DNA of 64,000 nt, taken from Austropuccinia psidii. Taxonomy: Eukaryota; Basidiomycota; Pucciniomycetes; Pucciniales; Sphaerophragmiaceae. Each line of letters begins with the position of its first letter. Position 1 is the stretch's first letter. Position numbers and translations under genes: made by a program. The stretch spans positions 5,355,499-5,419,498 of the forward strand of contig JALGQZ010000015.1 in the NCBI GenBank assembly GCA_023105745.1, written 5' to 3'. The notes below the pieces were generated by a model. The model ran no database searches, was not told the DNA's origin, and worked only from the letters and a program-made list of their open reading frames with translations. Below, piece after piece: positions 12,041 to 32,866 of the stretch.

Positions 12041-12086
12041 CACCGGGGCGAATCTCGTGTCAATCGTCGGCGATTGACTTCACGTC
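12041..12086 (+). repeat. Left terminal inverted repeat of copy 2
   Basis: 46 bp matching the right end in reverse complement except at positions 5 and 18. It contains its own small inverted repeat (12059-12078, arms GTCAATCG and CGATTGAC around TCGG), conserved at both ends, which may be part of the transposase binding site. Confidence 0.92.
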
Positions 12087-12165
12087 AAGCAAACGTCAAG
12101 CAGGATAAAAGTCGAGCTCACGTCAAGCGAAAATCAAGCGAACGTCGAGCACACGTCACACTCTG
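12087..12165 (+). repeat. Left subterminal repeat cluster
   Basis: At least six variants of the short motif CGTCAAGC/CGTCGAGC follow the terminal repeat. Clusters like this just inside the ends are typical of CACTA elements and are thought to bind element-encoded protein. Confidence 0.65.
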
Positions 12166-12372
12166 GTCTTACACCAAATCCTGTGACATCCAATAATATT
12201 GGTTCCCCTGTGCCTTCAACTCAGATTCCTCACCGCCTGATCATCCCACAACCGTCCGATGATTGGTAAAAATTACACCAGACCCGCCTGTTTGCACACA
12301 CACACATCAAAGATGTCCTTCAGCCAGTCTTGATGTAGGCGGGGGGTTTGACTTCACCAGGTCATCCATGAA

Positions 12373-12560
12373 GTGTGCGTGTGCATGCGTGGGGGCGGGT
12401 GCGTTTGCGTGTGCATTGGCGTGTGCGGGTGGGTTTGCGTGTGCATTGGCGTGTGCGGGTGGGTGTGCGTGTGCGGGTGCGTGGGCGTGTGCATTGGCGC
12501 GTGCCGGTGCGTGTGCGTGTGCATTGGCGCGTGCGGGTGCACATGCGGGTGTGGGTACGC
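12373..12560 (+). repeat. GC-rich 30-bp minisatellite
   Basis: Tandem units of about 30 bp built from GCGTGTGCATTGGC and GTGTGCGGGTG, degenerating towards the right. All frames through it stay open because of the repeat structure. No protein is called here. Confidence 0.75.
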
Positions 12561-12813
12561 AAAAGCCGATTCCGCTTCCAACATGATGATGGCGCAGTTA
12601 GAAATTTTGGATGCTGTGAAAGGTGAGTGTGTGGGTCATTTGATCATTGGACTTGGCTTATTCACACTGTACCCAATGTCAAAATAGTAACTTCTTTGTG
12701 GCAATGTGAAATAATGGGCTTTGCTTGTCACAATGGCATGTCTCTGTCACTAAATTTTGAGGCAATTACTAGCAAAATTGCTAATGAATCTGAGAGATTT
12801 GCATTTTAGTAGA

Positions 12814-15800
12814 CTAAATATCATGAAATAACGGCTTTATCATTACAAGCAGTCCACATGACAGAGCTTTGTTATCATACAATCCACAGTTACCTTCTAT
12901 TTCTTCTTCAGATATAATCAAGTGTCCATCATCAAAACCAACAGCTTTATAAATATTCAGATGCGGCCAATCTGGTAGGAAATTCACATCAATCTTCAAA
13001 GGTTTTAAAATCAGAAAGTTATTGTTCAGTATGCTAGATGGCTCAGAGACTTTGAAAATGCTATCAATAATACCAAATTGTCGTGAGTTGCCCCTCAGAA
13101 AACATATCACACTGTTGCTGATATTTTTGGATTCAGTTGAAAATATATTGTTCCCAATATTAATGCTTGAAACTGGAAAATACCAAGGTGAGACAATCCT
13201 TGAAGTGGGAGGACTTGTGGATTGCACGGTAGTGTCTAAGCTGATCCAATCAACTATTTCCCTTGTTGCATGAAAAGTCTGTAAGTACTCAACCAGGCAA
13301 TCATAATTTTGTTGGTCATGGCGGGATGGCTTGTTATATTTATGGTGATTGAACACGGCAGGTGGCTGTGATTCAAAAAGCTGTTTTATTTCACATGGCA
13401 CAGATGGGGATTTCAGGAGAACGGAAAGGTTGGAACATCGACAGATATGTTGAAGTAAGGTTTTATCTATATCATCTATTCAGAGTTGCAAAAAGTTAGT
13501 CTTATTCAGTTCAGGTGTTTAATCAATGTGAATATATTGATCTTATTAATTGACTTACATATCTTGTTATTTGTTGGCATCTTTGCAAATACTCCAATCA
13601 AGCGCTCATAACCCCATGTGGCTGAGGCTTGTGCTGGGCCCCAACGTTGGAAGAGTTCGGGAATATGATCAGCAAAATGATGATTTGGTTTACTTTTCTG
13701 TTTTGGGAACAGGTGTTGATTGGAAAGGCGGAATTTTTTCCAATGTTCAGCAAATGCAGTCGCATCATCTATTGAAACAGTCCAGCTTGTGGCAATGTTG
13801 ATAGCACTAATCAAATGGAATGTATTCTTGGCTAGTTCATTTGCAAGTTCTTCTGACTGACCCATTTTTCTTTGAGTGTTGGCGGATTGGTGTGCATCTA
13901 ATGACATCTGTTGACTGAGCATTAGAAATGGAATATAGACCTTATATAAGAGAGCCCATTCAGCGGCTTTTAAGCTACCATGAGAGGGGGAACCCATTTT
14001 GCGGGGAACTCTTGTCCAAGATGAGGGAATTATGGTCTCAGATATTATTTGTCGGAGATGCTCAAGAGCCTCACCCTTGATCTGGTGATCACTCAGTGCA
14101 GTGATATCCAATTCAGAGGGTATTTCAGAAGTGGGGATGTAATCGGCATCAAATGAAGGAATCTCCGCAGAACCACTAGATGGATGTTCTGTGTTAGGGG
14201 TGGGCATTGGGAAGTAGTTTTTTCGGGTGGAAGTAGTGGGGAGTGGCTCATTTATTATTTTTGCTGCGTCTCTTCTCAGGGAGCGGGCCTCTCTCAATGT
14301 GATTTTATCAAGAGAGCTGTTGGAGGTCATGGAATCTGAGTCTGAACTGTTGGTGTCATTGGATTTCCTGCGGGACCTGAAGTAAATTTTTGATTTCGCC
14401 TCTGGAATGCACAATTTGAAAGTTGCATGATCCTTCAAAATTCCAAGTATTAAATTATGCATTATGTCAAGATTAACCATTCTGGTTGCATCCCAATACG
14501 GAAGGTCTTCCAAAATTGAATATCGCACTCCATACTCAGAGAAAATTGCTTGTCTTTGTTGTGGGGTTGCCCGAAGCCATTTGGCAATGGTTGATTTATG
14601 ACTTTGGTATGAGCGCGTGTAGTGAAATTGAGGACCAATTTCTTCAATTTGAGCTTTGTGAATGGTGCAAAAATTACAAAAGTGGTTGCCTGAATGGGAA
14701 ATAAATCCAGTAAGCTTGCGCATGGCAACCACATCCGCAATGGCTGTGAGGATGGCAACACGGATAAAGGATCCTGATGGACCTGTTGAGGTGGGTGCAA
14801 AATGGTAACCTTGCCATAGCTCTTTGAGCTCGTTGATGAGTGGCATTAATAGATAATTCAATTGAAGCGCAGTTGGCTCCTTCGGACCAGGGATGATTCC
14901 TGCAACATAGACATTCTCGGGCTTCAATCGTTCACTTGGGGGGAGATTAAGACAAATAAGCATGATAGGTCCAATGCTAGCCAACCGGGTTGACTTTCCA
15001 TGTGCATTAAACCAGTCCACATATATGGAGAAGGCCAATGCACCAGGAATGGACATGAATGGGGGGTCATGGATATTTCTAGTGCCAGTGAAGCGTCTCC
15101 AGACCAATCCATCCCAGACGTCACGTTTTGGGGAATCTTCGGGAGTTTGGGATTGTTGATGTTGATGCAGAATGTCCATAATTCCAGCCCGCTGGAGGAA
15201 TCTGGCAAGCCAATTTTTGAATGGTTGATAAATGAAATGTTTTGTTGGTATAAATTTTTGCTTCATGTTGGTTGTGTTTTGGGTTTGGGGTTCAGATGAA
15301 TAGATGAATTTGCCTAATGATTGTGTGCAAGGGGGATCATGATCATTTGGGTCATTATGGCGTTGACAGTGGGGTTGGTCAGTTGTGACTGATTCAGTAA
15401 GGCCATTAAGAGAGAAACATTGAGGACAACATATATAGTTTTGAATCACTGGCTCCAATTGGAGATGTTCAAATATGGTACTCAGATCTTGAGGTATATG
15501 GAATGCAGGAGCGGGGGGACCAGCTGAGCTTGAGATACTGGACTTGATCAGCAGGTTCAGGGCGGGGTTGAGTATGCGTGAAGCCCTGCGGGGTAAATTA
15601 TACCTTAATGATAGAATGGCAGATATTATCATTCCTAGGTCTTGTGGGGGAAGGGTTTGACTGCCACTATATGGTTTCTGTGCAGTTGAATTGAGACCCG
15701 CAGGAGTTGAGAAAGTGCTTTGGGTCAAACGTGAATAATCAGCTGGGAAGATTTGATCCAATAGAATTTGTGGGCACCCAGATCCTGATGCAGAAGTAGG

Positions 15801-15974
15801 GATGTTTGGAAGGGATTTGGGTGCAATGGTTGATTTGAGCTTTTTAATGTGCTGTTTATATTGGAAAGGTGTGAAGGCAACTCCTTGCCTATCACCCTCA
15901 GGGGAAGAATGTGTTTGAGTTGAGCAGTGTTGACACATGCATATACGCATTGAGGAATATGGCCGGGTTGTCAT
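12814..15974 (-). CDS. Tnp2-family (CACTA/EnSpm) transposase, two exons, 1025 aa
   Basis: DDE-type transposase expected to cut and join the terminal repeats of this element in the nucleus. Exons read 15974-13559 and 13475-12814; the 83-bp intron has GTAAGT and TAG borders and joins in frame (2416 + 662 nt). The N-terminus has a CMCQHC-type cysteine start and a second cysteine cluster near residue 190 (CCPQC). The core near residues 310-400 has the Tnp2 signature SIPGALAFSIYVDWFNAHGK, then IMLICLNLP and AGIIPGPKEP. Later come CNFC and LDIMHNLILGIL. The C-terminal exon ends LIKPLFHDI. KDZ-type transposase was considered, but the IPGPKEP and LDIMHN blocks fit Tnp2 better. Divergently transcribed from the gene at 16935. 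Start is the first Met of the open frame, just before the Cys motif. Confidence 0.88.
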
Positions 15975-16934
15975 TGTTGCAGGAATTGGGAGTACGGTTG
16001 GTTTGTGTATAAATATCTATGGTTGATGTGAAAGTGTTTAGGAGTGTTATTAATTGGAAATAAAATTCAGTGATTATTTATGAAGCGGGAGATGATTTGA
16101 GCCAGCTGAGGATTTTATCCCATTTGTAATGGAGCATGAGCTGCAGTGGATAAAGTTTAACATGTCTCATCTGGATGGCGGAATTGGTTAGGCGTTTAAT
16201 TGGGTAAAATGCCATGCTGCTCAATGCTCATACATATTCTAGTTTATTTACACATTGTGATAGTGTGGGTTTGACCATTGAGGGGGTTCCATTAGTGAAG
16301 TGTTACCATTGAATTGAGGGGATTAACATTTAATCCATGTACGCTGGCACGCCATCGTACATGGTTTAAACCTTATTACAGACATAACTATATAACTCTA
16401 TTACATAAGGGGTTGGAGTGCAGCTAAAGTCTTGGTATTTGGTTTGAGTACGGCGGGCTTTGAATCAGTTGGAATGTGATTTGGATTGTCTTGCCTTTCG
16501 TGAAAAGGTGATGTCTCTTTTGTGGGTAAATCCTTCATGAATATACCCCTTTACAGATGTACAATGTTGGGGAATTTCAATGCATATATTGGCAGTTTGG
16601 ATAATTCACAAAATGTGACAATGGGGAGGCGGAAATGTTACCAAATATGATTACCTATGGATGATGGGTCCCCTTTCAGATCAAGGAAATATCACATTAT
16701 ATGCTGGTAGGCCGTGCAGGGTGGTTTCCGACAAAAGCGGAGGAGCTCAAGAGGAGGCAGGGAGGATTCTCCTCAAAAGAGTCTTATCCGACTTCCACAC
16801 AACACTTAGTTCCAACTATTCATAGAATTTCTCTATTCTAAATTTGAAAAGATTTCATCTCATATCACTCTATTTTATCATAATACTGAGGTGTTTTATC
16901 TAGTTAAAAATATTACTGTACTTTTTCGGCCCTT
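15975..16934. promoter_or_regulatory. Divergent promoter region of transposase and 645-aa gene
   Basis: 960 bp between two divergent start codons, without a supported gene. It contains the palindrome at 16335-16364. The copy 1 equivalent (8114-9055) is recognisably conserved in layout. Confidence 0.6.
16335..16364. promoter_or_regulatory. Palindromic site P1
   Basis: A 30-bp imperfect palindrome with outer arms CCATGTACG/CGTACATGG. It shares the TGTACG...CGTACA frame with P2-P5, though its core triplets are CGC and TCG. It lies 361 bp upstream of the transposase ATG and 571 bp upstream of the 645-aa gene ATG, so it could serve both. Confidence 0.6.
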
Positions 16935-18996
16935 ATGTCATCTTTCAAGTCACATAAATCCCGTTCAGGTTCTGTTCATGACTCAAATAGTGAATTTAGC
17001 ATAGAATATGTTCAAACACAGTCACCATTGAGTCCCAACATTCCTCTCACAACCCCTATCGCATCCTCAATGAATGTATCAGGTCTTAACATTGATGTGG
17101 GCAATCCAAAGGCTCCAACTTCAAGCACTTGGTCGATCCCAAATATTTCCGTCACTCCAATTCCCCCGAATCCCACTAATACACAAATTCATGTGTCTCA
17201 GGGGCCAGAAGGCACACGTCAAATCTCCTCACACGCTAATCCCCAATCAAAATTTCCACGTGAGTTCCTCCTTAATCCCGGTCGGAGTCCAGTCGCATCC
17301 CAGGATCCCTTTGGCCAAAGTAAACAGCCAACCCTCAATATTCCATCAGGATCGCAGGTTCATGTGGGTGATGAAAGGCGCGTGGATGGGGGGCGACGAA
17401 AAAGACCTTTGGAAAATGTAACTTGGAGCGGTCTGTCGGAGGGAAATCCAGTATTGACGCTTCATCAAAGTAAGTCATTTGAATTTTGGAGTAGAAACTT
17501 ATTCATGATTTGATATGTTTGTTTCATGGGTTAGATATGGCACCTAAAGGCAAGTCAGTCCGATCTCAGGAGCCAATTGAAGATCGTGAGGATGACCAGT
17601 CTTCATTAATGTTTTAATGTGTTAACTGATGATTTGCATAGCAGGGGATGAACTTTATGCGTCTTCACCTCTGGTCCATAAAGAGAAAGTCAGTGGACGT
17701 CATCATCCATATGCCTCCAAACCAAGAACATCTCATGCCAGTTCATCAAGAGAAAAAATGGTGGATGATGAGGATGAGAACATGTCTCCGACTCAAAGTG
17801 AAAGAAATGATGAACCAAGGAGGGACAATTTCACAGCGCATGAGCAAGGCACTCAATCAAATAGTGAGTTCACCCATCCTCAGCTGGGCCTCGCCCAGAG
17901 TATGCTTGAACAATCCGAGGTCAGACAGCAAAGGAACCAGGCCCGCAAAGCTCACAATGTGGCGAAACGTGCAAGCCAGAAGGAGCAACAAAAATGGCTG
18001 AAGGGAGAACTTCCAGAGAATGTCCATGGAATGAGATCAGCAGTACACGCACATTGCCTGTTCCTACTCAAAGTTAGGGATAAGGATTTTTCCTCACTAC
18101 CAACACCACCCAGCACAGAAGAGCGTGAAATTGCAATTCAAGTGGCTGGTCATCTCGGTTATGTCCCCGAGGATGTGTTCAATGAGCCATCAACACAGGT
18201 TCAGTCTCAGGGTTTCCAAAGCTACTGCGAAAATGAGCTCCACAAGCTAGGACTAAAGCGATTCACTTGGGACTGGGAGAGCTCATGGCAACATCCGTTC
18301 AACGAGCTGATGTCTATGGTGTTTTACCGTACATTCCGTCTCGCACTTGTCAGCACTGAGTATCATCACTACTGTTGGAACAAGGATCATAACAACTATG
18401 GGGTCGTGGCGGCTTTAATGGAGCGATATTTCACTTATTTGAAAAGAGAATGGAAGTCTATTCAAAAGGATGCCGAGTATTTGGTAAAAAAGAAAGAGAA
18501 TCAAAAGCTCGCAAAGATTCGTCAAAGAGTTAGTTACTGTATCTCTTCTTCATTGTGGACCAAGTCTGATGATGATCTACTTGATTATGTGCAGACCTGT
18601 GAGCGCCGTCGTGAATGGTGTGATACGGCTAAATTTCCCATCCTAGCATCACAATTCAATGACCCTCGAGTATGTTCAGATACTGAGGAGGTACTGGAAA
18701 ATGGCCGTCAAGTTTACCGCAAAGTGGGATTACGCTGGCGCTCCCAGTTATTTAATGATTTGGTATTAAAAATGGATAGAGACATAGAGTTTTGTAATCG
18801 GATTAAAAAAAAGGGTAAAAAAACTATTGATAGATTGCCAGAATTACGATCGACAGATGATGGTGATATTCCGGAAGGCCTATCATTTCAGGTATTTGAT
18901 CAAGATTGGCTCAAAGGCTGTAGTAAGATGCAGACTAGCGCCCTCAAGATACTTGACATGCCAGTTATTAGGCCTAATGGTGATGCTCTGCAATAA
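16935..18996 (+). CDS. Unknown 645-aa protein of the transposon, three exons
   Basis: I do not recognise a named family. Exons 16935-17469, 17535-17585 and 17645-18996 join in frame (1938 nt). Intron 1 has GTAAGT and TAG borders. Intron 2 has GTGAGG and a tandem TAG/CAG acceptor, both choices staying in frame. The first 200 residues are Ser/Pro/Thr-rich and probably disordered, starting MSSFKSHKSRSGS. A basic stretch follows (KAHNVAKRASQKEQQKW). The rest is ordered, with a conserved-looking core YFTYLKREWKSIQKDAEYL and many Trp and Cys residues (TCERRREWCDT). No catalytic motif was recognised. Since CACTA elements usually encode a second DNA-binding protein (TnpA-like) beside the transposase, that is the leading guess, unproved. 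Convergent with the helicase, stops 173 bp apart. Confidence 0.75.
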
Positions 18997-19168
18997 CTTA
19001 GTAATTGGTCACGGTATAGCACTGTGACAAATTAAAATTTTGTGAATTATTTGTGCAGGTGTAATAAAATCTGATTATTATCTCTTAAGGATGCAACAAC
19101 TTGCTAAATATGTTAGAATATAGACAATATGAATTGAAATGTATCACCGTCTCCCTTGCAATAATACT

Positions 19169-21735
19169 CTATTGCTCATTTTCATTGAGGAAATATTGAA
19201 GAAGTTCGATCCAGCTCATGGTGTTCATAATTGTGGACCTGTGCCAGAGTCAACAGGAGTTATCAACTTTGTCAATCACATATTATATAATATCAGTAAG
19301 GCTCACGCAGTTAATGATTTTTTCTTTTCTTGGACCTATTGGTAATTGGAATATGGCATTCCCATAAGGAATGATTTCAGAATAGTAATACAATCAAGTG
19401 AAAGATGAGCTTGAAAGGTACCTTCCGCATGTTGACCTCAACTGAATGAGGAGTGATATAGTGGATGACCTGTACAGGTCGTTGTTGGCCAATACGATGT
19501 AGACGATCAACAGCCTGAGCCTCAATGGCTGGGTTCCAATTGGGCTCCTGGAAATGTGGATGTCAGGGTCCGAAAATCAGGGGAGAATTTTGGGGGGCCC
19601 CTCACCATTAAATAGACTACATTAGCACAAGTTATATTGAGGCCAGTTCCAGCCGCGGCAATGGATGCAATGAGTACTTCACATTCAGGATTATTGAAGA
19701 AATTCTCAAGCGCCTTGTCCTGCGCTCGTGGTGTAATTGTTCCATCAATTCGTGCTGAAAGGATAGAGTGATGGGCAAGAGCAATACCAATTCTACAATA
19801 TAAAAAAGTCAGATGGAGTCAATTGGTAATGGATGCATATTAGAATTAACGCACAAATCTAGAAATTGGGTCCATTGGGTATAAACCACCGATTTCGTTG
19901 GACCACACCTTGTTTGTTTGTTCTTCATTAAGCTTTGTAGGAGGTGTGCAATTTTACTACTCATCATGCATGTTTCCACATCCACAATAGTTCGTGTGAT
20001 TCTTGGGGAGTTATCCTGAGTGCTCCTGCCCTCGGGGTCTTCCAGCTCCGCCTCCGCAATTGTGTTAAGCATGATGTGATGGTTACAACATATTCGCAGC
20101 TTATTAATATTTCTGAAAAACTCTCCTGGTCCTTTGCTTTTGGATGATAGGAATTCTTCATATAATGTGGAATATTCTTGCTGCATGGTCGGGTTGAGTG
20201 GGAGCAGCTCATAATGATGGCTAATAGTGGGGAGAGATTCGAGATGTGTGGTTTTGGTGCGGCGCAAACTTAAATGCCGCAATGCCAAATGCAAAATATC
20301 ATTGCAACCTTTTGAAAGACTACTCAGGATGAATGGTGACCAGTTATCTTGATCGGCGCTCTGGGGTTGAGTGATGAAGGATATTATGCCCAAAAGGTCA
20401 TAAATGGTGTTGTGAATAGGTGTGCCCGTTAAACATATTCGACGGGATGAAAGGAGGCTATTAATGGCACGGTGAGTGGCAGTGTATTGAGAGCGAATAT
20501 AGCTATAAGAGGGGGCAAGGGTTATTGGATATAAAAGGTAATTTGAATCATTTAAGCTCAGCCACTCACTGTGCTTCATCCAAGATTATACGATGCCAAT
20601 TGATTTGAAAAATGAATGATGTAGAGGGATTGGTTTGCTTAAATTCTTGGGTGATAGTATTGTAAGAAGTGATGATGATATCATATTTTAAGATGTCGGC
20701 TTGGGATAATGAGTGACGAGTGGGACCATGGTAGATTTTGGCATGCAGTGCTCCAGCCTGAGCATGCTTGGATATTTCTGATTGCCAGTTGGTAATTAAG
20801 CGAGGGGGGCAGATGATCATGGTGGGCGTGGAGCGATGGGGGTTTGCAATCATCCGCTCCTTGGAGGTACCAATTAGAGCAATGGCCTGAATGGTTTTAC
20901 CTAATCCCATATCATCCGCAAGCAGTCCTCCAAGAGGGGTATTGGTCGAAAGGGATTCAAATGAGCTAACGACCTTGTTTGTAATGATGTGCCTGGCATT
21001 AAAAGTGGATCCTGGGGGTGAGGTTGCCCAAAGGTTACGGGCTGATTGGCCATTGGGGATTTCTCGATCCCAGAGAAAAGCTAGTCCGGTCTTTTGATGA
21101 GGGAGGAGGGGGGTTTGAATAATGGCATGGGGCGGGGTCATCATGGGGAGGTCTGATCCACTGGGTAATTGTATCAGTTTTTGCTTGGAAATCAATGATG
21201 AAACAGCAGGATATGAAGCAGGCGTCGAGTTTGAAGCGGGAAATGTCGGAGTAAAGAGTTGACATTGACAATGAGTAGTACAGTCATATTCTTTGGGCAT
21301 TTTAAGCTTGAAATCTTGTGTTCGAAAGCTTTCCATTATGAATAGAACGTTTGGATACCATGTGAAGAACATCAATGCTAGATTGGGTTTCTGAGATGAG
21401 GAGGGATCATTGGCATCAGTCATAAATACTCCCTCAACAAATAATATTTGAGTAGGATTGGATTGGCAATTTTCAATCCATGCCCCACCAGGACCACAGT
21501 GCATGAACGTTTTGGGTGCCCCAAGGAATGGTATCAACGTTTGGGAAAGGGTTCCCGGGAGAGAGCCAATAGCATGCTGGTGATTGGGGAGATATACGAA
21601 TATGTTGTGTTGATTGTGCCATAGGATAATCCAAGAACCTAAGTGGGAATTCTCAGGCTTTAAGGTTATATCACTATTTATTTGAATACGAATATTAATC
21701 ATCCCAATGCAAAGTGGTTGTGAAGGGGTTGACAT
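19169..21735 (-). CDS. SNF2/RAD5-HLTF-like DNA-dependent ATPase, six exons, 741 aa
   Basis: Double-stranded-DNA translocase of the SNF2 superfamily, acting in the nucleus on nucleosomes or protein-DNA complexes. Exons 21735-20570, 20502-19855, 19792-19606, 19547-19422, 19335-19307 and 19238-19169 all join in frame with GT-AG introns of 50-83 bp. The N-terminal 200 residues are unassigned. Then come the Q-motif-like LLPHQKTGLAFLWDRE, motif I DDMGLGKT, motif II DEAH (its His codon split by intron 1), motif III CLTGTPIHN, motif V AGTGLNITCAN and motif VI QAVDRLHRIGQ. Rad5/HLTF proteins often carry a RING finger between the lobes; I see none here. All ATPase motifs look intact. The copy 1 equivalent at 1-3343 is a pseudogene, so the gene belongs to the transposon rather than to flanking host DNA. 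Confidence 0.88.
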
Positions 21736-23457
21736 GATGGCTATTTTGAATTATTTGGGGACAGTTGGGAATTATATGATCGGGAAGGGTTAGCTAAAGG
21801 GAATGAAGAGGAATAAGCGCAGGTGGGGAACTTATATGAGTGGCAGCAACAGGCCAAAAGGGGGATGGCCTGTGGTTACGTGCATGGTCTTGATGGAGGT
21901 GGGCCTCTTGGGCTCATAATTTTCATATCCGATTTGGGGCATATATCAAGGCAAGGTGGCCAAAATGTGGGTGCACCATTTGACTGCTGGATCTGCAGCG
22001 AGTTACGAAACCTTTGGTGGAACAAGGCTGACATTAGCACATCCGAAATTGGGTGGGTTGTAGCAGCTTATTGTGGAGGGCATATTAGAGGCATGCAGTC
22101 ATGTTTGCTGGTGTGACAGCAAACAATGAGCGTATCCTCCCCAGGTTAATTGTTCACAGGGAGCTACTGGGCAATGTTGGCAGTTTCAAAGGGCAATCTC
22201 ACTGTGGGGATGTTTGTGTGTGGGCGGGTGAGATATGTTCGGTGGCATGCCACCGAACATGACTTTGGTTTGGCCTGAAGTTTTTTGCTGACTGATGCAT
22301 ACTGGGCTTTCAGGGGGGAATGTCTGGGATGATCAAAGGGGGCGCCAGCCGTGAGCCGTGATCCACATATACATTCACCCCTATGGCGTTTGAGGCGAGT
22401 ACTAATCCACCGAGATTGGCATTGGCCTCTTTGCCTCACGCGCGTACAGAACTCCGGAGAAAGAGGCCACACGCCCGAGGAATTTTTTGGCTGCAAGCCA
22501 GGTGCCACAACTTGCGCGGGGCGTGTGAGAACGTGAAGAAAATGACCCGCGGTGGGAGATACCCACGCGAACATGACCAGCCTCAGCAATCATAGGCTGG
22601 GATTGTTATTCTAATGTGGATGAGGCTGAAGCAAATCCACACTGATTGGCCTCAGGTTTCCACGCGCAAGCGGGTGAGCGTCTGCAGTCAAGCTGACAAC
22701 CCGACCAAGAAAATAGGCAGCTGGAAGACTGGCAGTAAAATGTCTTCCAGGCGTGTGAAAGTTGCCTGTGTATGACCCATCGGGGGTGCGTATGAAAGCG
22801 TGTGGCTGCCCGACAATGAACAAGCGGGCCAGTCATTGTTTGCCCCAACAATGGCACCGGAGTGAATCAACTCTTTGTGTTAGACCCAAATATTAAGTCA
22901 TCCCATTAAGACCCACTTACATTAATTTGGATTACATGCGCATCTGTGCCGTAGTTAGGCAGAGCTGTCCAACAAGGTGCATCAAAGGGATGCAGGTGAG
23001 AGATATGACTCGATGGCTTGACGTTATTGCATGTTACATTGTTGAACAGCTTTTTGCTCTGCCCCGCAGTACATTTACAAAGGTGTACTGCGTACTACAG
23101 TGTCGACTGTACTGTACAGATCAGGAAGGTGTAATACTACTTGAGCCTGCATCCATCTAGCAAATGTGCATGCACCTTCCGATCGTTTGCATTTACGTAG
23201 CTCATGTGCCACATGCTCAGCATTGCGTTTCACCCGATTTGCACACGCAAGCTGAGCATGTCATGGTCAAACGCACCGTGAGAAAGTGCTCAGTAAAGCC
23301 ATGGAATGAACTCTTTTGCAATAGTTCATTGGAAGGCTCAGTTTGGAGCACTTCACCAAAGCGTGTGAAATGCTGCACCTGGCTGAAATGTCATCCGATG
23401 CTGTGCCAAATGCTCAGAGTGCGCGCATACAAAAACGACTGAGCAATGGCTCAGCAT
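21736..23457. other. Long intergenic region, GC-rich
   Basis: No supported gene. It holds palindrome P2 (22235-22260) and a CpG-rich stretch (22300-22870) where the word GCGTGTG recurs, as it does in the 40-bp minisatellite further right. Open frames here lack any recognisable protein character. It could contain the leader of the downstream Cys6 gene or an unrecognised non-coding transcript. Confidence 0.5.
22235..22260. promoter_or_regulatory. Palindromic site P2 (perfect)
   Basis: A perfect 26-bp palindrome with half-site ATGTTCGGTGGCA, giving CGG-N10-CCG. It lies 500 bp upstream of the helicase ATG. The CGG...CCG inverted spacing resembles sites bound by Zn2Cys6 dimers, and this element encodes such a protein. 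Confidence 0.7.
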
Positions 23458-24239: not shown

Positions 24240-24351
24240 GTTGCAGCATTTGCTGAGACTCAGCTTCAATTTTGCCCACACGCCTTGAAGCTGAGACTTT
24301 TGCGGGTGCTGCAACTGCTGAGATCGTCTCAGCTTCACCTTGGTATAAAAG
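24240..24351 (+). promoter_or_regulatory. Nested stem-loop and TATA box of the Cys6 gene
   Basis: Outer arms GTTGCAGCA (24240-24248) and TGCTGCAAC (24307-24315) enclose inner arms CTCAGCTTCAA (24259-24269) and TTGAAGCTGAG (24285-24295). About 30 bp further on is TATAAAAG (24344-24351). A likely leader intron (donor near 24704, acceptor TTTTTAG directly before the ATG at 24775) follows. Confidence 0.65.
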
Positions 24352-24774
24352 ACCATCTTCACACGACACGCACTTCACTTTCTTTCTCACCCGCTCCACT
24401 TCGCTCAACCTCACCCGCGTTTGTCCTTCTTGTGCGTATTCCCCCTCGTCTTCCTGCCTTTCCAGTCTTTTCTTTCGCACTCGACTAACCCCACTCCCCT
24501 TCCTGCTCGCTTTTTGTTTTTCCTGCTAATACTTTCAGAACCCCACTTCTATCTACTTTGTACGTTTTCTCCAATTAAACTTTAGTCAACATTATGTACC
24601 GATATTAATATTTTTCTTTCTTCACGACTTCCTTCCAGACTTTTAAAAACTTCCGACTAGAGCGTTTTTATATTGATTCCATTTTAAATTTATATAAATC
24701 ATCGTATGTCTTCCTTTTCTTTCTTGATTGCTTACTTTCTATTCAGTTACTAACCTGTTTTGTTTTGTTTTTAG

Positions 24775-26150
24775 ATGTCGTGCACGTTATGCACCAAGCG
24801 GGGTATCCCCTGCATTCGCTCCTCGACGACGAACGACGCTTGTGATGCTTGCCGACAAGCACACAAGAAATGTTCGTTCGTTGTCCGCCCCTTCCGACCA
24901 CGAGGCCAGACGAGTTCTCGCCCAAGACGCCCTCGCGAGGACTCCTTTGTGGTCGACGATGATGAAACCATTTCCGAGCGTGAATGGACGCCGGGCCCCC
25001 AAACAGGCCAACGGGAACGATTCCGGACGATTAGCCCTGTCCCCTCCAGTATCGATTTGTCCACTCCCCCTCCTAGGCCACCATCCGATGGTCACTTCAC
25101 TCCTCGACCGGAGCGAAGTGATTATCCGGCCGATGAAGGATGGCGATGGCGAGAGGACATTCGAGCTTGGGCTGATCGTCACCATGTCTTGTCACCGATG
25201 GGATTCAAACGCCAAAGTAAGTTTTATTTCTCCTCTTTATCTCATTTCTCTTCACGCAATAATACTGACTTTTTTCCATTACTCATAGAACCAAACCCCC
25301 CGAATCCCCCCCGACACGACTCTCCCGTTCCCAGTTTGCCTCGCGAGCAAACCCCCCGGCAACCCACTCCAGGCCCGAGTGGCACCCGATGGTCTGAGGA
25401 ATTATTCCGTGGTAAGCAGCCAAAGTTTCATTTCATTTTCACTTTCACTTTCGAGTCGAGTGAACTGACTCTTACTCCTTTTTTAGAACCCTCCCGAACC
25501 GAAGAGCCACCTATTCCTGGCCCGAGTCCATCGTCCCAACCACCTGAGGACGATACGACTCGTGAGCCAGAACCTGAGGTGGCTCCTACGCAATCCACGG
25601 AGGAACCTTATGGTAAGTCACCCCTTCTTTCTCTTCGATCCATATTCACCTTTCCTCATTTTTTCTTCGACCGTCTCCAGATCGTCCCGCCACTCCTCGC
25701 TCGATCATCATCATCGACGATACGCCCGTGGGATCACCCCATCCCCCTCCCCCTCCCCCTCCCCCTTCTTCTTCACCGACTCCACCATCTTCCCCTTCCA
25801 CTCCAACCCCGGTTCCCTCCCCAGAGATCCCTTCCAGTGCCCCCGAGAACCCCAACGCCTCCTCCCCCCTGGTGCCAAGCTCGTCTCATTCTCACGATGA
25901 CGCTCGCCAGGAATTCACCGACCTGCGACCGACCCTAATGATTCCTCGAGCCATCGTCCACGATTCGATCAACCGAATCTTGTTGGAGCATCGTCGCTTG
26001 CTCCACATGATTCCTTTCGTGGATGCAACTCATCGAAATGAGATGCACCGGGAATTCCGGGAGGAACTAAACTCCCTCCTTGGCAAGGCAATGGAGGCTT
26101 ATCCAAAGGAGGACATCACCGGGATAGTCTCGAAATACTTAGAAAAATAA
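24775..26150 (+). CDS. Zn2Cys6 zinc-cluster protein of the transposon, four exons, 386 aa
   Basis: Probable DNA-binding regulator. Exons 24775-25216, 25289-25411, 25487-25612 and 25681-26150 join in frame (1161 nt) with GT-AG introns of 68-75 bp. Residues 3-35 hold C-x2-C-x6-C-x9-C-x2-C-x6-C, the spacing of the fungal Zn2Cys6 cluster, followed by a basic stretch (RPFRPRGQ, RPRRPRE). The middle is disordered, rich in Pro, Ser, Glu and Thr. The last 80 residues look helical (LEHRRLLHMIPFVDATHR, then REELNSLLGKAMEAY) and could mediate dimerisation. It is shorter than typical Zn2Cys6 factors and lacks their middle homology region. The element's CGG-N10-CCG palindromes are plausible targets. I recall very similar proteins as abundant in A. 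psidii, which fits a mobile gene. A role as simple structural zinc protein is possible. Confidence 0.82.
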
Positions 26151-26584
26151 AAAAATTTAAAAAAAAAATCATTATTTCCTCTATTTATTATTTGTAATAC
26201 TTTCTTTCATATAGATTTTTTGTATTGAATGATTGTTATTTTCCATTTCTATTACATTCTTTGCTCACGTTAAGTTATATTTTGTTCAATGGTTCAAATA
26301 TCCTATTGCATGAGAAAACGTTTTATAAGTGCCCTACCAAAGGTTTGAGTGAGTATTTGTTTGTGTGACCCTCTTTTTCTCAAAATGCCCCAATAGTTGC
26401 CGTTATCCTCTCCTATATTTTCTTCTCCCATGGTTTAGAGCCATACCCATTCTTAACTGTAAAAAAGCGGGAGGTTCCCGTATGTGAGCAATCGAGTCCA
26501 GATTCGTGAAACATGGCCTTTCCTATGGTCACACGCTATTAGTCTTACTCATGTATTGAATTGTTTAAATTGGCTAGAACCTTC
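26151..26584. other. 3' flank of the Cys6 gene
   Basis: AT-rich region with no supported gene; likely the 3' untranslated end and spacer before the minisatellite. Confidence 0.4.
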
Positions 26585-27165
26585 ACAAGCGTAAGGATTG
26601 GCGTGTGACTTGTCGGGAGGCTGCACAGGCGTAAGGATTGGCGTGTGAATTGTTGGGAGCCTGCACAGGCATAAGGATTGGCGTGTGAATTGTTGGGAGC
26701 CTGCACAGGCATAAGGATTGGCGTGTGAATTGTTGGGAGCCTGCACAGGCGTAAGAATTTGTCAGCATTGTTGGCAACCCTCCCATGCGTAAGGATTGGC
26801 GTGTGAATCGTCGGAAGCCTGTACAGGCGTAAGGAATTTTAGCACTTTTGGGACCCTCCCCAAGCATAAGGATTAGCGTGTGAATTGTTGGGAGCCTGCA
26901 CAGGCGTAAGAATTGGCGTGTGAATTCTTGGGATCCTGCACAGGCTAAAGAAAATTTCAGCATTGTGGGGAAGCTTCACAAGCGTAAGAATTGGCGTGTG
27001 AATCGTCGAAAGCCTGTAAAGGCGTAAGGATTGGCGTGTAAACTTTTGGGAGCCTGCACAGGCATAAGGATTGGCGTGTGTAGCGATGGCCCCCCGCATA
27101 GGCGTAAGGAACTTTTAGCATTGTCAGAACCTGCACAAGCATGAGGATTCGCGTGTGAAGCATTG
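26585..27165 (-). repeat. 40-bp minisatellite, about 14 units
   Basis: Units of 40 bp such as CTGCACAGGCGTAAGGATTG followed by GCGTGTGAATTGTTGGGAGC. The middle ones are near-identical and the edges degenerate. Minus-strand open frames (repeated NPYACAGSQ-type peptides) are a by-product of the period and are not called. Units abut with no unique spacers, so this is not a CRISPR array. Confidence 0.88.
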
Positions 27166-27197
27166 GCATCCTGGACAATAGCAACAAACCAGGACCG

Positions 27198-27223
27198 ATG
27201 TACGATGGCATGCCACCGTACAT
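27198..27223. promoter_or_regulatory. Palindromic site P3
   Basis: 26-bp near-perfect palindrome, half-site ATGTACGATGGCA with one mismatched pair. The core is CGA-N10-CCG. It lies between the minisatellite and the 3' end of the TET-like gene, so it does not fit a simple promoter role for the adjacent genes. Confidence 0.6.
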
Positions 27224-27347
27224 AATCCACTTCACCCCTTTTTCATGTGAGACACCCCATCTCCGGCACTCGAATCCATCCAATCCTGGTGTATATTGTC
27301 CTCTGCCTTACCTCACCATTACTTACCCAACCCACTTGCAAATCTCC

Positions 27348-28692
27348 TCATTCTTTGAATCGGCATGAGATTGTATTACCATCCCTGATTTGATAGCCCG
27401 CTCTCTCGCCAATCTCATAATAGCCATTGCTTTTTTGCCGCATTGTTTTTGCTAACCTGCTTGAGCATTGTGCGGACATACCCACTAGTGTCGTGCTTTC
27501 GTTGTCCTGTGCTGGATCAGTATAATGAACAAATGTACTACTGGCCCACACTACCTGAATGAGCCCATGACATGTGGATAGATCAATCCAAAAATGCTCA
27601 TTTGGGAAAATCAATTTTCCCCCTGTACACCGCTTTGACGCATCTCTTTGAATTTGGCCGGTCCGCTTATCAGCTTGAAACCACCATCCCGAAGCATACA
27701 GCGATGCATCCTTATCAACATGAGGTGCGTTTTTGAATCCATTCATGGTGAAAGTGAGTGCGGAAGCGAACTCGAATGCACCCTGATTTGCCGGAATATC
27801 GCCTTCATAGTTTACTTGATCAAAAGACGGAACCCCCAATGAGTTGTAGCAATTTTGAATCTTCTGAAATAAATTATCCCCAACATATCGTAAGGATTGA
27901 CCTAGAATGCGACCCACCGAGCTAAGATTGGCACCTCGGTCCCGCCATTCATCTTTTGCATTTTCAATTTTGCCAGCACTACCATACAGACCAAATTGTT
28001 CATTCTTCGTGGTGCATTTGCGCCACCCAATCGCGAACATAAATCCCTCCAGTAATGCTCCATTTGTTGCAATAGGGTCAGTGAACCTCTTTTCGCGAAA
28101 TAAGAATTGTGATAATTCATCCCATTGATTGACCTCGACTTCACTCATTGTTGTGAATGGTCGGAATTCAACAAGGGCAATGAGTAATCCGGTTGAAGAG
28201 AAAATTGCCACACGGCCAAAGTGAATGCGTTTGATCTGATTGACATCCACAACCCTCCGAATTTCACTTGGGGTGATATTTGCTGATACTGGCATTGATA
28301 TTTGTGCTGTTGGGCGAGAGGAGGAAAAAAACCTATTCATTCGGGTCGTTTTGCGCTCATTTGTCTTTTGGGATCTGCTACTATTCCCGAGTGGTTGCGG
28401 GATCACTATGTGTTGAAGCACACAAGATATCAGATACTGCCAAGGAGCTTTCTTCGGCACACATCCTTTGACTTCCCTGTTGGAGCCCACATGACATTGG
28501 CACAATCTGAACCGACTAAAGCCCATGTTCTTCAGTGGGGCCCAATGAGGGTGCCACATAAATGTGGAAGCATATATATATATCTATATATATACACTGA
28601 GATTAAGCGAGTAACTCACACTTTCCTTCCTCAGCCCGACGCTTTCTCGCGAGTTCCCTTTTACGCTCTTTTCCTTTTTTCGTGAATGGCAT
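27348..28692 (-). CDS. TET/JBP-like 2OG-Fe(II) oxygenase carried by the transposon
   Basis: Belongs, by recognition, to the Tet-like 2OG-Fe(II) oxygenases expanded in basidiomycetes; relatives oxidise 5-methylcytosine in DNA or RNA. The main exon reads 28559-27348 without interruption (403 codons if begun there). In that numbering an HxD pair sits in KNAPHVDKD near 281-283, and a distal His in FVHYTDPAQ near 343, matching the H-x-D...H iron site. The region ahead includes LIFPNEHFWIDL and GLIQVVWASS. A probable first exon starts at ATG 28690-28692 (MPFTKKGKERKREL, very basic, NLS-like) with a donor near 28620 and an acceptor just upstream of the RFRLCQCHVG segment. That splice is tentative, so the exact N-terminus is unsure. 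Substrate is inferred from the family only. Confidence 0.78.
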
Positions 28693-29269
28693 GCTTTCAG
28701 CAGAAAATGAAATGAAACCGAATGATTACTGATTTCTTAATATCACCTAAATTGGATTGCGATGGATGAATCTTTTTTAATTGCGGCTAAAAAGAAAGCT
28801 CACGCCTGACCTTGGCAAATTCACGATCTCAAATACCTGAACCTGAAAATTGCAGTGGATAGTGCATTATTCAATTTTACACATTGATGTTCCCATGCAA
28901 TCACTTTCCAATCCAGCAATTTGGAATATTGCAAGCACACGCAAATGCAATATGCATCCTGCTGCGGATCCCTAGTTATCCCACTCCTCTTGAAAGACAC
29001 AGGAACCTTTTGCCTATTATGGGCTGGCGTGAAGTGATACACGCGACCTCCCGCAATGCCCCCGCGTGTGCTACTCGCGGGCACAACGCCTGACTCAGCT
29101 TGCGTCTTGTCGGAGTCTTCGCAATGATGTACGGAGGCATGCCGCCGTACAATTACTATTGGTACTCAGACTGTGGCATCCGGGCAGTAGTAGGATAGGA
29201 AGTCATGATTATTAAATTCATAAATCACTTTGCAAAATTAAATTACAATCTATCTAGTACAAAGCTAAT
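28693..29269. promoter_or_regulatory. Promoter region of the TET-like gene
   Basis: 577 bp with no supported gene. It contains palindrome P4, 436 bp upstream of the likely TET-like start. On the left it borders the basic first exon; on the right it is the 3' flank of the 677-aa gene. Confidence 0.45.
29128..29151. promoter_or_regulatory. Palindromic site P4
   Basis: 24 bp, arms TGTACGGAGGCA and TGCCGCCGTACA, one mismatched pair, core CGG-N10-CCG. Lies upstream of the TET-like gene. Confidence 0.62.
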
Positions 29270-31512
29270 CTAAAACGGGTCAATCCTGGTTGTGAGTTTA
29301 GCTGACCTGGGTACCGTCAAGGTGACCTCATCACTTGAACCAAGCCCGCGATTCGCCACCCAGGCATCACCAAAGTCTAATACTAAGCATCGTGCAAAAT
29401 CAAATCTAAGAGGTACAGTGGGGTTAAAAGACTCTGATGAGAAGAAACTTTTATTCAGTAAATTACATATATACTTATTAGTACGTAGCCACACTGGCTC
29501 CACTAGATTTTTACCCTCTGAAAGTTTTGCGGAAATGTCAATTAGTGCTAAAGCCCCTTTAACTGAGCTTGTTCTCCAGTCATCTGAGCATACCATCAAA
29601 CCACGAACCCCCGCCGCACAGAATGCCGCTAATATACCATAGCAAATTCGATTGATTCCAAGATTCTTGTGACACGCCAAAAGATCTTTGATGGCCTCAT
29701 TTTTTTTTGAGTTTGTGAGTTTGCCTTTGATGCCATTAACTTCGACCTTTGTATGTGCACGTACCATGTTGTACGCAATCATCAAATGGATAACTGTATC
29801 CATTAGATCCTCCAGGTTCTTGTGCGGCTTTGTGGATATCTCATTGTCAGCCCCGCCACCTTCAATGCTGAGTTGGGTTGCACGTTGCTTCGATTTACTC
29901 AAGCAGGAGGCAAGGTATTCAACTGCTCCCCGTTCGAGTCCAAGAGGATCGGTCGAATTTGATGTTGGTGCAACATATGGTTTGGGTGCAATCACATCGT
30001 ATGAGACTAAACTAATGGATTCAAACATAACATTTGCCCAAAAATGTTTAACTGGATTGGCGGGGTAAAGAAGGCTCTGAACCATTTTGAAGAAGGAGTG
30101 TTCAGATTTTGGGAGATTATCTGGAGGTTTAGCTGATTCCTTCATCAATTTGAGATTCCAAATGTTGTGATCAAAAAACGCTTCTGTTTCGGTTGGCTTA
30201 AAAAAATCTAACCCTGTATATTGCAATTTATATCACCAGTCAACAGCCAATAATCAAGTATCATGCACAAAGATAAAAAAAAAACTCACCTGCCATCTCA
30301 AGGTCCTGCAGCCAAGCCGACATTTTAAGATCTCGGTTACTGATCACCTTAATACCAACGGGCAGGAATGTATGAGCATCCTTTGTTGGTAAATTGTCCC
30401 ATCTATTTTTGTAAATCCTATTGATATTATCAAGCCCCCTTTTCCATGATTGTTGAGTAATATTGGAATGATAATTCAAAACGCCTGCAAACTCTTCCAT
30501 GCGGGATAAAAATATTCCTTGAAAATTTGCAGCGGATGACACTTCGGGCTCAGCGTCGGGAATTATATCAGTCATATCTCGTCCCATTGTATCATGTTTA
30601 ATTGTTTCCCTTTCTTGAAAGGCTTGAATATTCCGAGGAGAGGCGGGAGGGGTTGCATCATGCATTGTTTCATTGGGTATCGGGGGACTTTCAGTATGTG
30701 GAGCTTCATCATGGATTGTTTCATTGAGTATTGGGGGGGGTTCAGTATGCGGAGGTTCATTATCAATATGGTCCCCTTCAACATTGATAATTTCATCACC
30801 TTGATCGCGAGAATCGTTTGCGGCTTCAAAGGTACGGCGTTTTTTGTTTGTTTTTTTGGTCGCATGTATATTTGGTCTTTTTCCTAATCCTTTGCCTGGA
30901 AATCCAATTACGACTCGAGATCCTTCAGGTAGAGATTCTCCCACCTCCACACCTGCCCATATATTGTAAGCAGCTATTTTTATCAATTTTGTTTTGAATT
31001 AGTAATGGACTTACGGTTCAAATCCATTTTGAGCAGGCTCATGGCTTCAGCAATCTTTTGACGCACATAATCAGGAATTTTACTATCATTTTGGATTTTT
31101 TCGAGCCTTGGGATTGTTTGAGCAATGTTGGAGACAAATTGTTCCTTGGATATAATTTCCACCTCCCCACTGAAAATTACATCATCTTGCCCATCATCTT
31201 CTGTCGGTGCACAAGGTTCAACAGTCTTTTCCTTCTCATAACTTTTAAAATTCGGTTTCTGAGAGCTTGGAGGCTGCCCTGAAATAAAGGCTATGACACA
31301 ATATCAGGTTTTGAGAGATTTGAAATATTAAAGATGGATGCATACTCACATTCCGGAAGAACTGGTGGATCTTGATTATCTTCATGTGACTGGCTCTCTA
31401 CTTCAATGCCTAATTCACGACTACTGGCGATATCAGAGATTTCACTTCCACTCTCTGGGGCTGAAGTTGGTCGTTCATTGAATTCTGTTGAATTTCCCGG
31501 GGTTCGGGCCAT
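29270..31512 (-). CDS. Unknown 677-aa protein of the transposon, four exons
   Basis: Not recognised as a named family. Exons 31512-31350, 31278-31015, 30952-30290 and 30213-29270 join in frame (2034 nt); introns have GTGAGT or GTAAGT donors and CAG acceptors. The N-terminal half is acidic and probably disordered, with a basic NLS-like patch (KKTNKKRR) and two copies of a short PHTEPPPILNET-like repeat. The C-terminal 330 residues are ordered, with KHFWANVMFESISLVSYDV, MDTVIHLMIAYNMVRAHTKV, and a Cys-containing hydrophobic segment ICYGILAAFCAAGVRGLMV that is too interrupted to call a membrane span. No catalytic motif is evident. All splice phases agree, which supports one real gene. It could be an accessory DNA-binding or structural factor of the element; that is a guess from context. 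Confidence 0.72.
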
Positions 31513-32048
31513 AGCGGAGGTAGTTTATTAAGCAAATAGATGGTGACGAGTTGATTGCTAACTTGTTTGAAAATTTTTTGATAAAAGATCCAAATTCGAG
31601 AAAAAAGGTGCAAATGCGATTTGTCGGGAAATTGAAGGAGGCGATGTTTTGCAAATTATTTCATATCATGCAAATGAAATCACTTCCCTGTGAGACATTG
31701 AATAAAGTTGACTAGTGAGAAACCTACTAAAGTCAACTTTTGAACTATTCAATGCTCATGAGGTAAGGACTAAGCAAAGTGTTCATTTGATTGATATGAA
31801 ATAAAATGGTTTTGTCGGCGAAACAGGAGACACAATTCTTGTCTTAAATAGTCCACTTATTAGGTTTTAATTTGTGAGTCTCATGATTTAAACCCTAGCC
31901 ACAACATGGTGAATATACTGACCAATATCCCCTTAGGTCCTGTTGGCAGAGAAGGCCACTCAGCATATTTCGGCAATTGCGTTCATCGTGTACGCCAACA
32001 AGCCACCGTACTGTACACTATGGATGTAATACGGAAGCGTGAGGAGGG
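31513..32048. other. Promoter side of the 677-aa gene and approach to the right minisatellite
   Basis: No supported gene. Contains degenerate palindrome P5 (31989-32012) and the sequence runs directly into the minisatellite. Confidence 0.4.
31989..32012. promoter_or_regulatory. Degenerate palindromic site P5
   Basis: Aligns without gaps to the P2-P4 consensus at 18 of 24 positions; right half GCCACCGTAC is exact, left half begins TGTACGC. Core CGC-N10-CCG. Lies 477 bp upstream of the 677-aa gene ATG. Confidence 0.4.
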
Positions 32049-32520
32049 TAAGCGTTGTCGGAGGCATGTCGGGAGGGCACTACATGAGCGTAAGGATGGT
32101 AAGCAGTGTCGGGAGAATGTCGGGAGGGAGGGTAAGCGTTGTCGGAGGCATGTCGGGAGGGCACTACATGAGCGTAAGGATGGTAAGCAGTGTCGGGAGA
32201 ATGTCGGGAGGGAGGGTAACTGTTGTCGGAGTCATGTCGGGAGGGCACTACATGAGCGTAAGGATGGTAAGCAGTGTCGGGAGAATGTCGGGAGGGAGGG
32301 TAACTGTTGTCGGAGGCATGTCGGGAGGGCACTACATGAGCGTAAGGATGGTAAGCTGTGTCGGAGGCATGTCGGGAGGGCACTACACAAGCGTAAGGGT
32401 CATCAGTGGTGTCGGAGGCATGTCGGGAGGGCACTACATGAGCGTAAGGATGGTAAGCGTTGTCGGAGGCATGTCGGGAGGGTACTACACAAGCGTGAGG
32501 ATGGTAGGGGCGGGGGTGTG
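32049..32520 (+). repeat. Right minisatellite, compound units of about 50-85 bp
   Basis: Tandem blocks built from GTCGGAGGCATGTCGGGAGG, GCACTACATGAGCGTAAGG and ATGGTAAGCAGTGTCGGGAG. The repeated plus-strand peptide (GRALHERKDGK) is a by-product of the periodic sequence, so no gene is called. It sits near the right terminal repeat as the 30-bp minisatellite sits near the left. Confidence 0.82.
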
Positions 32521-32699
32521 AAAGCGTAAGGAGTGGTGAGGACGGAGAGGGGCGGGCAGTGTCGGAGTCTCATCCGGATGGAGGGCGGTGCGGGTGCGTA
32601 AGCATGCTAAGCGTCGGGGAGGCGGAAGCCAATGAGGTGAAATTACACGAACGTTGCGCATAGTGTTGAAATGGGTTTGGGCTTTGAGTGACATTCTCA

Positions 32700-32817
32700 T
32701 GTGACACATGTGACGATTGACGTTGTCTTGACGCTGACGTGACGTGACCCACTAAATCCAGTGACTATAAAGTGACACTAACGCGACTGAAGCAAGATTT
32801 TATACTGACCGCGGTGC
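32700..32817 (-). repeat. Right subterminal repeat cluster
   Basis: Several TGACG/GACGT motifs (for example TGACGATTGACGTTG and GACGCTGACGTGACGTGAC) just inside the right end, the inverted counterpart of the ACGTCAAGC cluster at the left end. Confidence 0.6.
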
Positions 32818-32863
32818 GACGTGAAGTCAATCGCCGACGATTGACGCGAGATTCGCCCTGGTG
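32818..32863 (-). repeat. Right terminal inverted repeat of copy 2
   Basis: 46 bp ending GATTCGCCCTGGTG, reverse complement of 12041-12086 with two mismatches, followed by the TAT target duplication (32864-32866). Confidence 0.92.
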
Positions 32864-32866
32864 TAT

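What the first reader, a model, noticed from the sequence alone, without database searches (positions are those of the whole stretch)
12041..32863. A 20.8-kb CACTA-like transposon carrying helicase, zinc-cluster and TET-like genes
Directly seen: 46-bp terminal repeats, a TAT duplication, and six genes whose inferred exons all join in frame. Known: CACTA elements are usually smaller and encode a transposase plus one accessory protein, and TET/JBP genes have been described beside KDZ transposases in basidiomycetes. A Tnp2 element that packages an SNF2 ATPase, a Zn2Cys6 protein, a TET/JBP-like oxygenase and two unknown proteins would be a self-contained chromatin and methylation toolkit on a mobile element. 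I do not know of a description of this combination.
Basis: partly seen in the sequence, partly recalled or inferred. Interest (0 to 1): 0.92.

Follow-up and report, generated by a model that had tools for sequence, protein, structure and literature searches.

The report
Six-gene TET/SNF2-carrying rust transposon
A 20.8-kb jumping gene in what is probably the myrtle rust fungus carries, besides its transposase, genes that look able to remove DNA methylation and open chromatin, and it sits in dozens of near-identical copies, so it may be a genomic parasite that brings its own anti-silencing kit.

Summary
Window 12041-32863 is one EnSpm/CACTA-type transposon with CAC..GTG ends, 46-bp terminal repeats and a TAT duplication. 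The host is Austropuccinia psidii or very close.

In the 1.015-Gb source genome I fetched six more copies nearly end to end and parts of ten more. SNF2 and TET lie at the expected place in 17 of 17 copies, the window's included. Both ends were found in 15 of 17, and all 15 have a perfect 3-bp duplication.

The element jumped into an older relative (67-82% identical in the main pieces) that carries relatives of the same six genes in the same order. So the cargo is neither nested nor accidental. Between the two, dN/dS is 0.43-0.55 for five genes; TET (0.80, 0.56-1.13) does not exclude neutrality.

TET-carrying EnSpm elements of rusts are already in print (PMC12730594). The package with an SNF2 ATPase and a Zn2Cys6-type protein is not in that paper's main text; its supplement could not be read.

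Anti-silencing is the best reading but is untested. Against it, copies still gain C-to-T changes, above all at TCG, and a small LTR element in the window keeps its CpG equally well.

The parts
12041..32863 (.). whole transposon, 20,823 bp
   Evidence: termini, TSD and near-identical copies
12041..12086 (+). left 46-bp terminal inverted repeat, CACCGGGGCG..
32818..32863 (-). right 46-bp terminal inverted repeat, CACCAGGGCG.. on the minus strand
12038..12040 (.). target-site duplication TAT, left
32864..32866 (.). target-site duplication TAT, right
12814..15974 (-). Tnp2-family transposase, 1025 aa; exons 15974-13559 and 13475-12814
   Evidence: Pfam Transposase_21 3.2e-15
16935..18996 (+). unknown-645 protein; exons 16935-17469, 17535-17585, 17645-18996; database relatives all named A. 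psidii
19169..21735 (-). SNF2-family ATPase, RAD5-like core; exons 21735-20570, 20502-19855, 19792-19606, 19547-19422; the last small exons (to 19169) uncertain
24775..26150 (+). Zn2Cys6-type protein, 386 aa; exons 24775-25216, 25289-25411, 25487-25612, 25681-26150
   Evidence: cysteine pattern; Pfam below cut-off
27348..28340 (-). TET-like dioxygenase, 330 aa; an upstream exon 28692-28620 is possible
   Evidence: Pfam 4.7e-47; H207, D209, H272 at least 90% conserved in 22 sequences; in 28 sequences D209 drops out of that list
29270..31512 (-). unknown-675 protein; exons 31512-31350, 31278-31015, 30952-30290, 30207-29270
16337..16362 (.). 26-bp palindrome between Tnp2 and unknown-645
22101..22126 (.). 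26-bp palindrome, diverged copy, 5' of SNF2
22235..22260 (.). 26-bp palindrome 5' of SNF2; recognisable in the older element
27198..27223 (.). 26-bp palindrome 3' of TET; a relative lies near -19876 in the older element
29127..29152 (.). 26-bp palindrome 5' of TET; recognisable in the older element
1..12040 (-). older related element, part beyond the insertion, with inserts (about 1438-2824 and LTR element 4140-6739); continues off-window to about -24741
32864..33961 (-). older related element, its left-end part; terminus at 33961

Best explanation
A recently active six-gene transposon of the EnSpm/CACTA group in a rust fungus (Austropuccinia psidii or very close). Shown: its ends, its target duplications, dozens of near-identical copies of the ends, the same gene content in every copy examined for it, and the same content in a diverged older element. 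Inferred: the Tnp2 transposase moves the element through its terminal repeats. The host methylates CpG in young transposons, and the TET enzyme oxidises that 5-methylcytosine on the element. The SNF2 ATPase loosens nucleosomes so that genes and ends stay accessible. The Zn2Cys6-type protein binds element DNA, perhaps the 26-bp palindromes, and aims the effect at the element. The two unknown proteins have unknown roles. The net effect would be to delay silencing and mutational decay, not to escape them.
For: Fixed package: SNF2 and TET in 17 of 17 copies; all six genes in 6 of 7 aligned copies, the seventh broken inside unknown-675. Relatives of all six genes collinear in an older element. dN/dS between the two is Tnp2 0.54, unknown-645 0.49, SNF2 0.43, Zn 0.46, unknown-675 0.55 over 307 of 676 codons, all with upper bounds below 1 although the older copy is dead. 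TET open over all 330 codons in 14 of 17 copies. Published host context: TEs hypermethylated, young TEs most, CpG lost by deamination (PMC12774611, passages). The older element's flanks have CpG o/e 0.04-0.07, the element 0.67. The window copy is open in all six genes.
Against: TET dN/dS 0.80 (0.56-1.13) does not exclude neutrality. Copies still gain CpG transitions: TCG 74 of 2316 cells against 12-25 of 1874-2040 in the other contexts. A small LTR element in the window keeps CpG o/e 0.74, so youth alone can explain CpG retention. Zn_clus is below Pfam's cut-off. Only 2 CGG-N10-CCG sites in the element, and no palindrome was seen 5' of the Zn or unknown-675 genes. Structure models were unusable. 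No expression, methylation or enzyme data were examined.
Confidence: 0.5

Rival explanations
1. The six genes travel together under selection, but TET and SNF2 serve something other than anti-silencing: for example SNF2 (RAD5-like) helps excision or repair at the ends, and TET marks or hypermodifies element DNA.
For: SNF2's best solved relative is the DNA-repair protein RAD5. TET relatives with other products exist, and the author of PMC12730594 leaves this open for rust-type TETs. TCG decay continues in the copies.
Against: The host is reported to silence young transposons by 5mCpG (PMC12774611), which makes 5mC removal the simplest use for a TET on a transposon.
Confidence: 0.28
2. Part of the cargo is a passenger: a core of Tnp2 and some partners is needed, while TET or the Zn2Cys6-type gene merely persists.
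For: TET dN/dS is not clearly below 1. Zn is open in only 4 of 7 copies.
Against: Relatives of both genes are in the older element. Zn dN/dS is 0.46 (0.34-0.62). TET is open over its full length in 14 of 17 copies.
Confidence: 0.2
3. The cargo is a separate element nested in a smaller CACTA element.
For: The window stretch 24001-26000, mostly the Zn gene, has its own composition (GC 0.508, CpG o/e 1.03).
Against: Same content at the same offset in the copies examined on five contigs and collinear in the older element.
Confidence: 0.02

Closest known systems
TET+ EnSpm transposons of rust fungi (Kojima 2025, PMC12730594; parts 1-5 of 7 of the text and the figure legends read)
   Same: EnSpm-type ends CAC..GTG, 3-bp TSDs, Plavaka-like/EnSpm transposase, TET gene on board, rust host; related EnSpm families are named for A. 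psidii.
   Different: The main text mentions no SNF2 or zinc-cluster cargo and uses 'helicase' only of Helitrons. Table S1 and the sequences in the supplement were not readable, so an A. psidii entry with the same genes cannot be excluded.
KDZ transposons with TET/JBP genes (Iyer et al. 2014; not held, recalled only; cited in PMC12730594)
   Same: Fungal DNA transposons that carry TET/JBP genes.
   Different: Different transposases; PMC12730594 gives 7- or 8-bp duplications for Kyakuja, Dileera and Zisupton, here 3 bp.
Classical CACTA/EnSpm elements of plants (recalled)
   Same: Tnp2-family transposase, CAC ends, 3-bp duplication.
   Different: CACCG/CACCA rather than CACTA; six genes over 20.8 kb.
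VANDAL elements with VANC anti-silencing proteins in Arabidopsis (PMC5735166 and PMC10398659; only the starts of the abstracts in a search listing)
   Same: A transposon that encodes a factor against its own silencing and repeated motifs in its own DNA (here only proposed).
   Different: No homology was tested; VANC is reported as a sequence-specific anti-silencing protein, whereas here the proposed enzymes (TET, SNF2) are on board. Working like it is a proposal, not a membership.

Membership tests
EnSpm/CACTA (CMCT clade) DNA transposon | 3-bp target-site duplication | tested here: met
   14 of 14 fetched copies with both ends (of 16 fetched) plus the window copy
EnSpm/CACTA (CMCT clade) DNA transposon | CAC..GTG termini in inverted repeats | tested here: met
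EnSpm/CACTA (CMCT clade) DNA transposon | Tnp2-family transposase | tested here: met
   Pfam Transposase_21 56.4 bits, cut-off 28.6
[quoted passage not shown]
   FCNFC, HFADH and YER seen by eye in the protein; no alignment to characterised transposases was made
Plavaka | Pfam Plavaka above cut-off | tested here: not met
   24.7 bits, cut-off 26.3
Plavaka | termini TGT..ACA or CATCA..TGATG (as given in PMC12730594) | tested here: not met
   termini are CACC..GGTG
KDZ transposons | 7- or 8-bp target duplication | tested here: not met
   3 bp
TET/JBP dioxygenases | Tet-like 2OG-Fe(II) oxygenase domain | tested here: met
   161.1 bits, cut-off 27
TET/JBP dioxygenases | HxD and distal H of the iron site | tested here: met
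   H207, D209, H272 at least 90% conserved in 22 sequences; D209 is not in the 90% list of 28 sequences
TET/JBP dioxygenases | TET fold | tested here: inconclusive
   model pLDDT 33.9, not usable; no PDB sequence match at E up to 1
TET/JBP dioxygenases | oxidation of 5-methylcytosine | not testable with these tools
   needs an enzyme assay
SNF2 ATPases | SNF2-related domain plus helicase C-terminal domain | tested here: met
   182.6 and 59 bits, cut-offs 24.9 and 23.5
Zn2Cys6 (fungal binuclear cluster) proteins | cysteine spacing CX2CX6CX9CX2CX6C | tested here: met
   7 of 7 copies; all six cysteines also kept in the dead older copy; that this spacing fits the family is recalled
Zn2Cys6 (fungal binuclear cluster) proteins | Pfam Zn_clus above curated cut-off | tested here: not met
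   13.9 bits, cut-off 21; hence called 'Zn2Cys6-type' only
Transposon-encoded anti-silencing system (VANC-like in effect) | lower methylation of the element's own copies | not tested
   no methylation data were at hand

The most novel reading that the evidence does not exclude
The element encodes a complete, self-targeted anti-silencing machine. Its Zn2Cys6-type protein binds the 26-bp palindromes (about ATGTWCG-N-TGGCATGCCA-N-CGWACAT) near its genes and brings its own TET and SNF2 there, so that a transposon demethylates and opens its own chromatin in a genome that methylates and mutates transposons at CpG. It would be a fungal counterpart of VANC with the enzymes on board.
Probability: 0.22. 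Interest if true: 0.88.

Novelty: new variant of a known kind. Interest (0 to 1): 0.64.

Why it matters
Transposon-borne TET genes are known in fungi, and PMC12730594 states that their function is not experimentally validated. This family is a good test case: many near-identical 20.8-kb copies, a host species with a published 5mCpG map (PMC12774611), an older relative almost without CpG right beside it, and an SNF2 ATPase and a candidate DNA-binding protein travelling with TET. Methylation of these copies against equally young TET-less transposons could be read from existing long-read data. If the package works together, it is a transposon-carried set of tools for editing the epigenome.

Tried and rejected
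Nested cargo: rejected. The Zn gene as a recent separate insert, suspected from its composition: rejected, because it is in all seven aligned copies and a relative is in the older element. CpG retention as proof of TET protection: rejected, because a small LTR element keeps CpG too and TCG changes still accumulate. Linkage from A. psidii MF-1 locus tags: 120 listed TET (of 292 found), 9 SNF2 and 37 unknown-645 tags gave no pair within 4, uninformative on short contigs; one MF-1 protein (P0106) joins an unknown-675-like stretch to TET, and another (P0014) joins a Tnp2-like start to TET. Structure models of TET (pLDDT 33.9) and unknown-645 exon 3 (pLDDT 53.9) were too poor for a fold search. A scan of viral contigs for the terminus found nothing. 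The palindromes: the pattern was written from these very sites, so its zero chance expectation is post hoc; imperfect palindromes in general are only slightly more frequent than in five Markov shuffles (23 against 8-18).

Errors of mine: the first gene-finder run trained on one wrong frame and was redone. My first Zn exon model misread exon 2 (Zn lines); corrected, whose Zn figures are used, while the pooled variant count still contains the old Zn model. Dropped rows: pieces under 150 bp, under 80 or 60 bp, hits under 150 bits, tandem arrays. Not done because the genome search stopped answering: a census of copies, intact diverged families, a palindrome count over the genome.
Full report
What was checked. 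The six genes join in frame in a gene-finder run trained on the element's own frames (Zn exon ends corrected).

Host. All 120 listed TET relatives (of 292 found) are named Austropuccinia psidii MF-1, and the source genome has 1,015,390,075 bases in 84 contigs. The published A. psidii genome is about 89% repeats, with CACTA second to Ty3; transposons are hypermethylated, young families most, and CpG loss is attributed to deamination (PMC12774611; abstract and 12 passages seen).

The unit. The left and the right 300 bp each gave 40 matches of 100% identity, the most the tool scores, from 1932 and 1819 candidates. The listed places lie on contigs C1-C6 only, and the window's own copy on C15 is not listed, so both lists are truncated. 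Eleven right hits pair with a listed left hit 20.4-22.8 kb away; 29 do not. That makes about 69 listed places besides the window's.

Six copies were fetched to near full length. All are collinear with the window copy, 98.2-99.5% identical over the pieces on the diagonal, and vary mainly in tandem arrays. One, C6:2525723, breaks off at element position 30249 inside unknown-675 and is followed by another piece of the same family. Of ten more copies I fetched the ends and stretches of SNF2 and TET. Both genes were present in 10 of 10, and TET was open over all 330 codons in 8 of 10. The right end was found in 14 of these 16 copies, and 14 of 14 have a perfect 3-bp duplication. With the window copy that is 15 of 15. 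The two misses are C6:2525723 and C4:24730557; for the latter only a 1.1-kb stretch was searched for the end.

The target. Both flanks of the element belong to one older, related element in the opposite orientation. Its left terminus is at 33961. Beyond the insertion it runs from 12037 through the window's start to about -24741, broken by other repeats. The new element sits in the older element's Tnp2 gene, and the flanks joined with one TAT match the uninterrupted gene. The older element matches element positions 12111-30250 at 67-82% identity in the main pieces, and relatives of all six genes lie in the same order and orientation. The 5' exons of unknown-675 and the right terminus were not found there.

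Selection. Between the two elements dN/dS (Nei-Gojobori, 500 codon bootstraps) is Tnp2 0.54 (0.45-0.67), unknown-645 0.49 (0.38-0.64), SNF2 0.43 (0.33-0.55) and TET 0.80 (0.56-1.13); Zn 0.46 (0.34-0.62) and unknown-675 0.55 (0.37-0.82, over 307 of 676 codons). The older copy is dead, with 9-14 stops in five genes and 1 in the covered part of unknown-675, which pushes these values towards 1. Among seven aligned copies, open frames are Tnp2 4 of 7, unknown-645 6 of 7, SNF2 5 of 7, TET 6 of 7, Zn 4 of 7 and unknown-675 4 of 6. Variants among these copies are 112 non-synonymous, 9 stops and 69 synonymous, a ratio of 1.75, against 2.6-3.3 expected from mutation weights that I chose; the 9 stops are each in one copy only (with the old Zn model).

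Methylation signature. CpG observed/expected is 0.67 in the element, 0.04, 0.06 and 0.07 in the three flank pieces of the older element, and 0.21 in the right flank. Yet direct CpG transitions explain only 148 of the 1560 differences between the two elements over the 8918 aligned columns, and transversions outnumber transitions, 844 to 716: they are long-separated families, not one family before and after decay. Among the seven young copies CpG transitions fall most on TCG: 74 of 2316 cells, against ACG 19 of 1874, CCG 25 of 1942 and GCG 12 of 2040 (cells, not independent events). PMC12730594 cites TCG hypermutation for Pucciniomycotina, so this family is still being hit. The small LTR element 4140-6739 keeps CpG o/e 0.74, so youth alone can explain CpG retention.

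Possible targeting sites. A 26-bp palindrome with core TGGCATGCCA lies at 16337, 22101, 22235, 27198 and 29127. All five are in all seven copies with few changes. In the older element those at 22235 and 29127 are plain, a relative of the 27198 site lies near -19876, and the other two are degenerate. Four of the five lie 5' of Tnp2/unknown-645, SNF2 or TET. That the Zn2Cys6-type protein binds them is a guess: only 2 CGG-N10-CCG sites occur in the element, and palindromes in general are only slightly more frequent than in shuffles.

Proteins. The SNF2 core is closest among solved structures to RAD5, and Pfam lists no RING or HIRAN domain at E up to 0.01. Nine A. psidii proteins are 75-85% identical to it; the remaining 111 of the 120 listed hits are at most 44% identical, and none of the named ones is from Puccinia. 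Unknown-645 has 37 hits, all named A. psidii; its poor model is mostly helical. TET keeps HxD and the distal H.

What is known. TET+ EnSpm elements with CAC..GTG ends and 3-bp duplications are described from P. striiformis, with related EnSpm families in other rusts including A. psidii (PMC12730594; parts 1-5 of 7 and legends read). SNF2 and zinc do not occur in its main text, and 'helicase' occurs once, for Helitrons. Six library searches listed no paper on a transposon with both SNF2 and TET cargo; I saw listings only for the other papers. The library lacks most subscription journals, and the supplement was not readable. Hence: new variant of a known kind.

Mechanism. The anti-silencing reading follows from the domains, the host's reported transposon methylation and the selection evidence. 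Each functional step is inference. The strongest points against it are TET's inconclusive dN/dS, the continuing TCG decay and the TET-less control.

Noticed in passing
50826-61806: Ty3/chromovirus-like LTR element: LTRs 98.6% identical over about 2.2 kb, an open gag-pol frame of 1581 codons at 53726-58468 and a further open stretch in the same frame after one TAA; RT, RNase H and integrase matches. CpG o/e is only 0.05-0.06 inside although the LTRs look young: possibly an element that copes with CpG methylation by having almost no CpG.
   Followed up: partly
4140-6739: Small LTR element, 531-bp LTRs 99.6% identical, nested in the older transposon; CpG o/e 0.74. Served as the TET-less control.
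   Followed up: partly
36167-37894: C2H2 zinc-finger gene (zf-C2H2 7.9e-19), CpG o/e 0.81 in a CpG-poor neighbourhood; probably a host gene.
   Followed up: no
12041-21200 compared with the older element: From the new to the older element G-to-T and C-to-A outnumber the reverse, 378 to 128; not explained by CpG deamination.
   Followed up: no
32036-32506: 84-nt tandem array near the right end; aligned copies differ in its repeat number, which accounts for part of the length variation.
   Followed up: no
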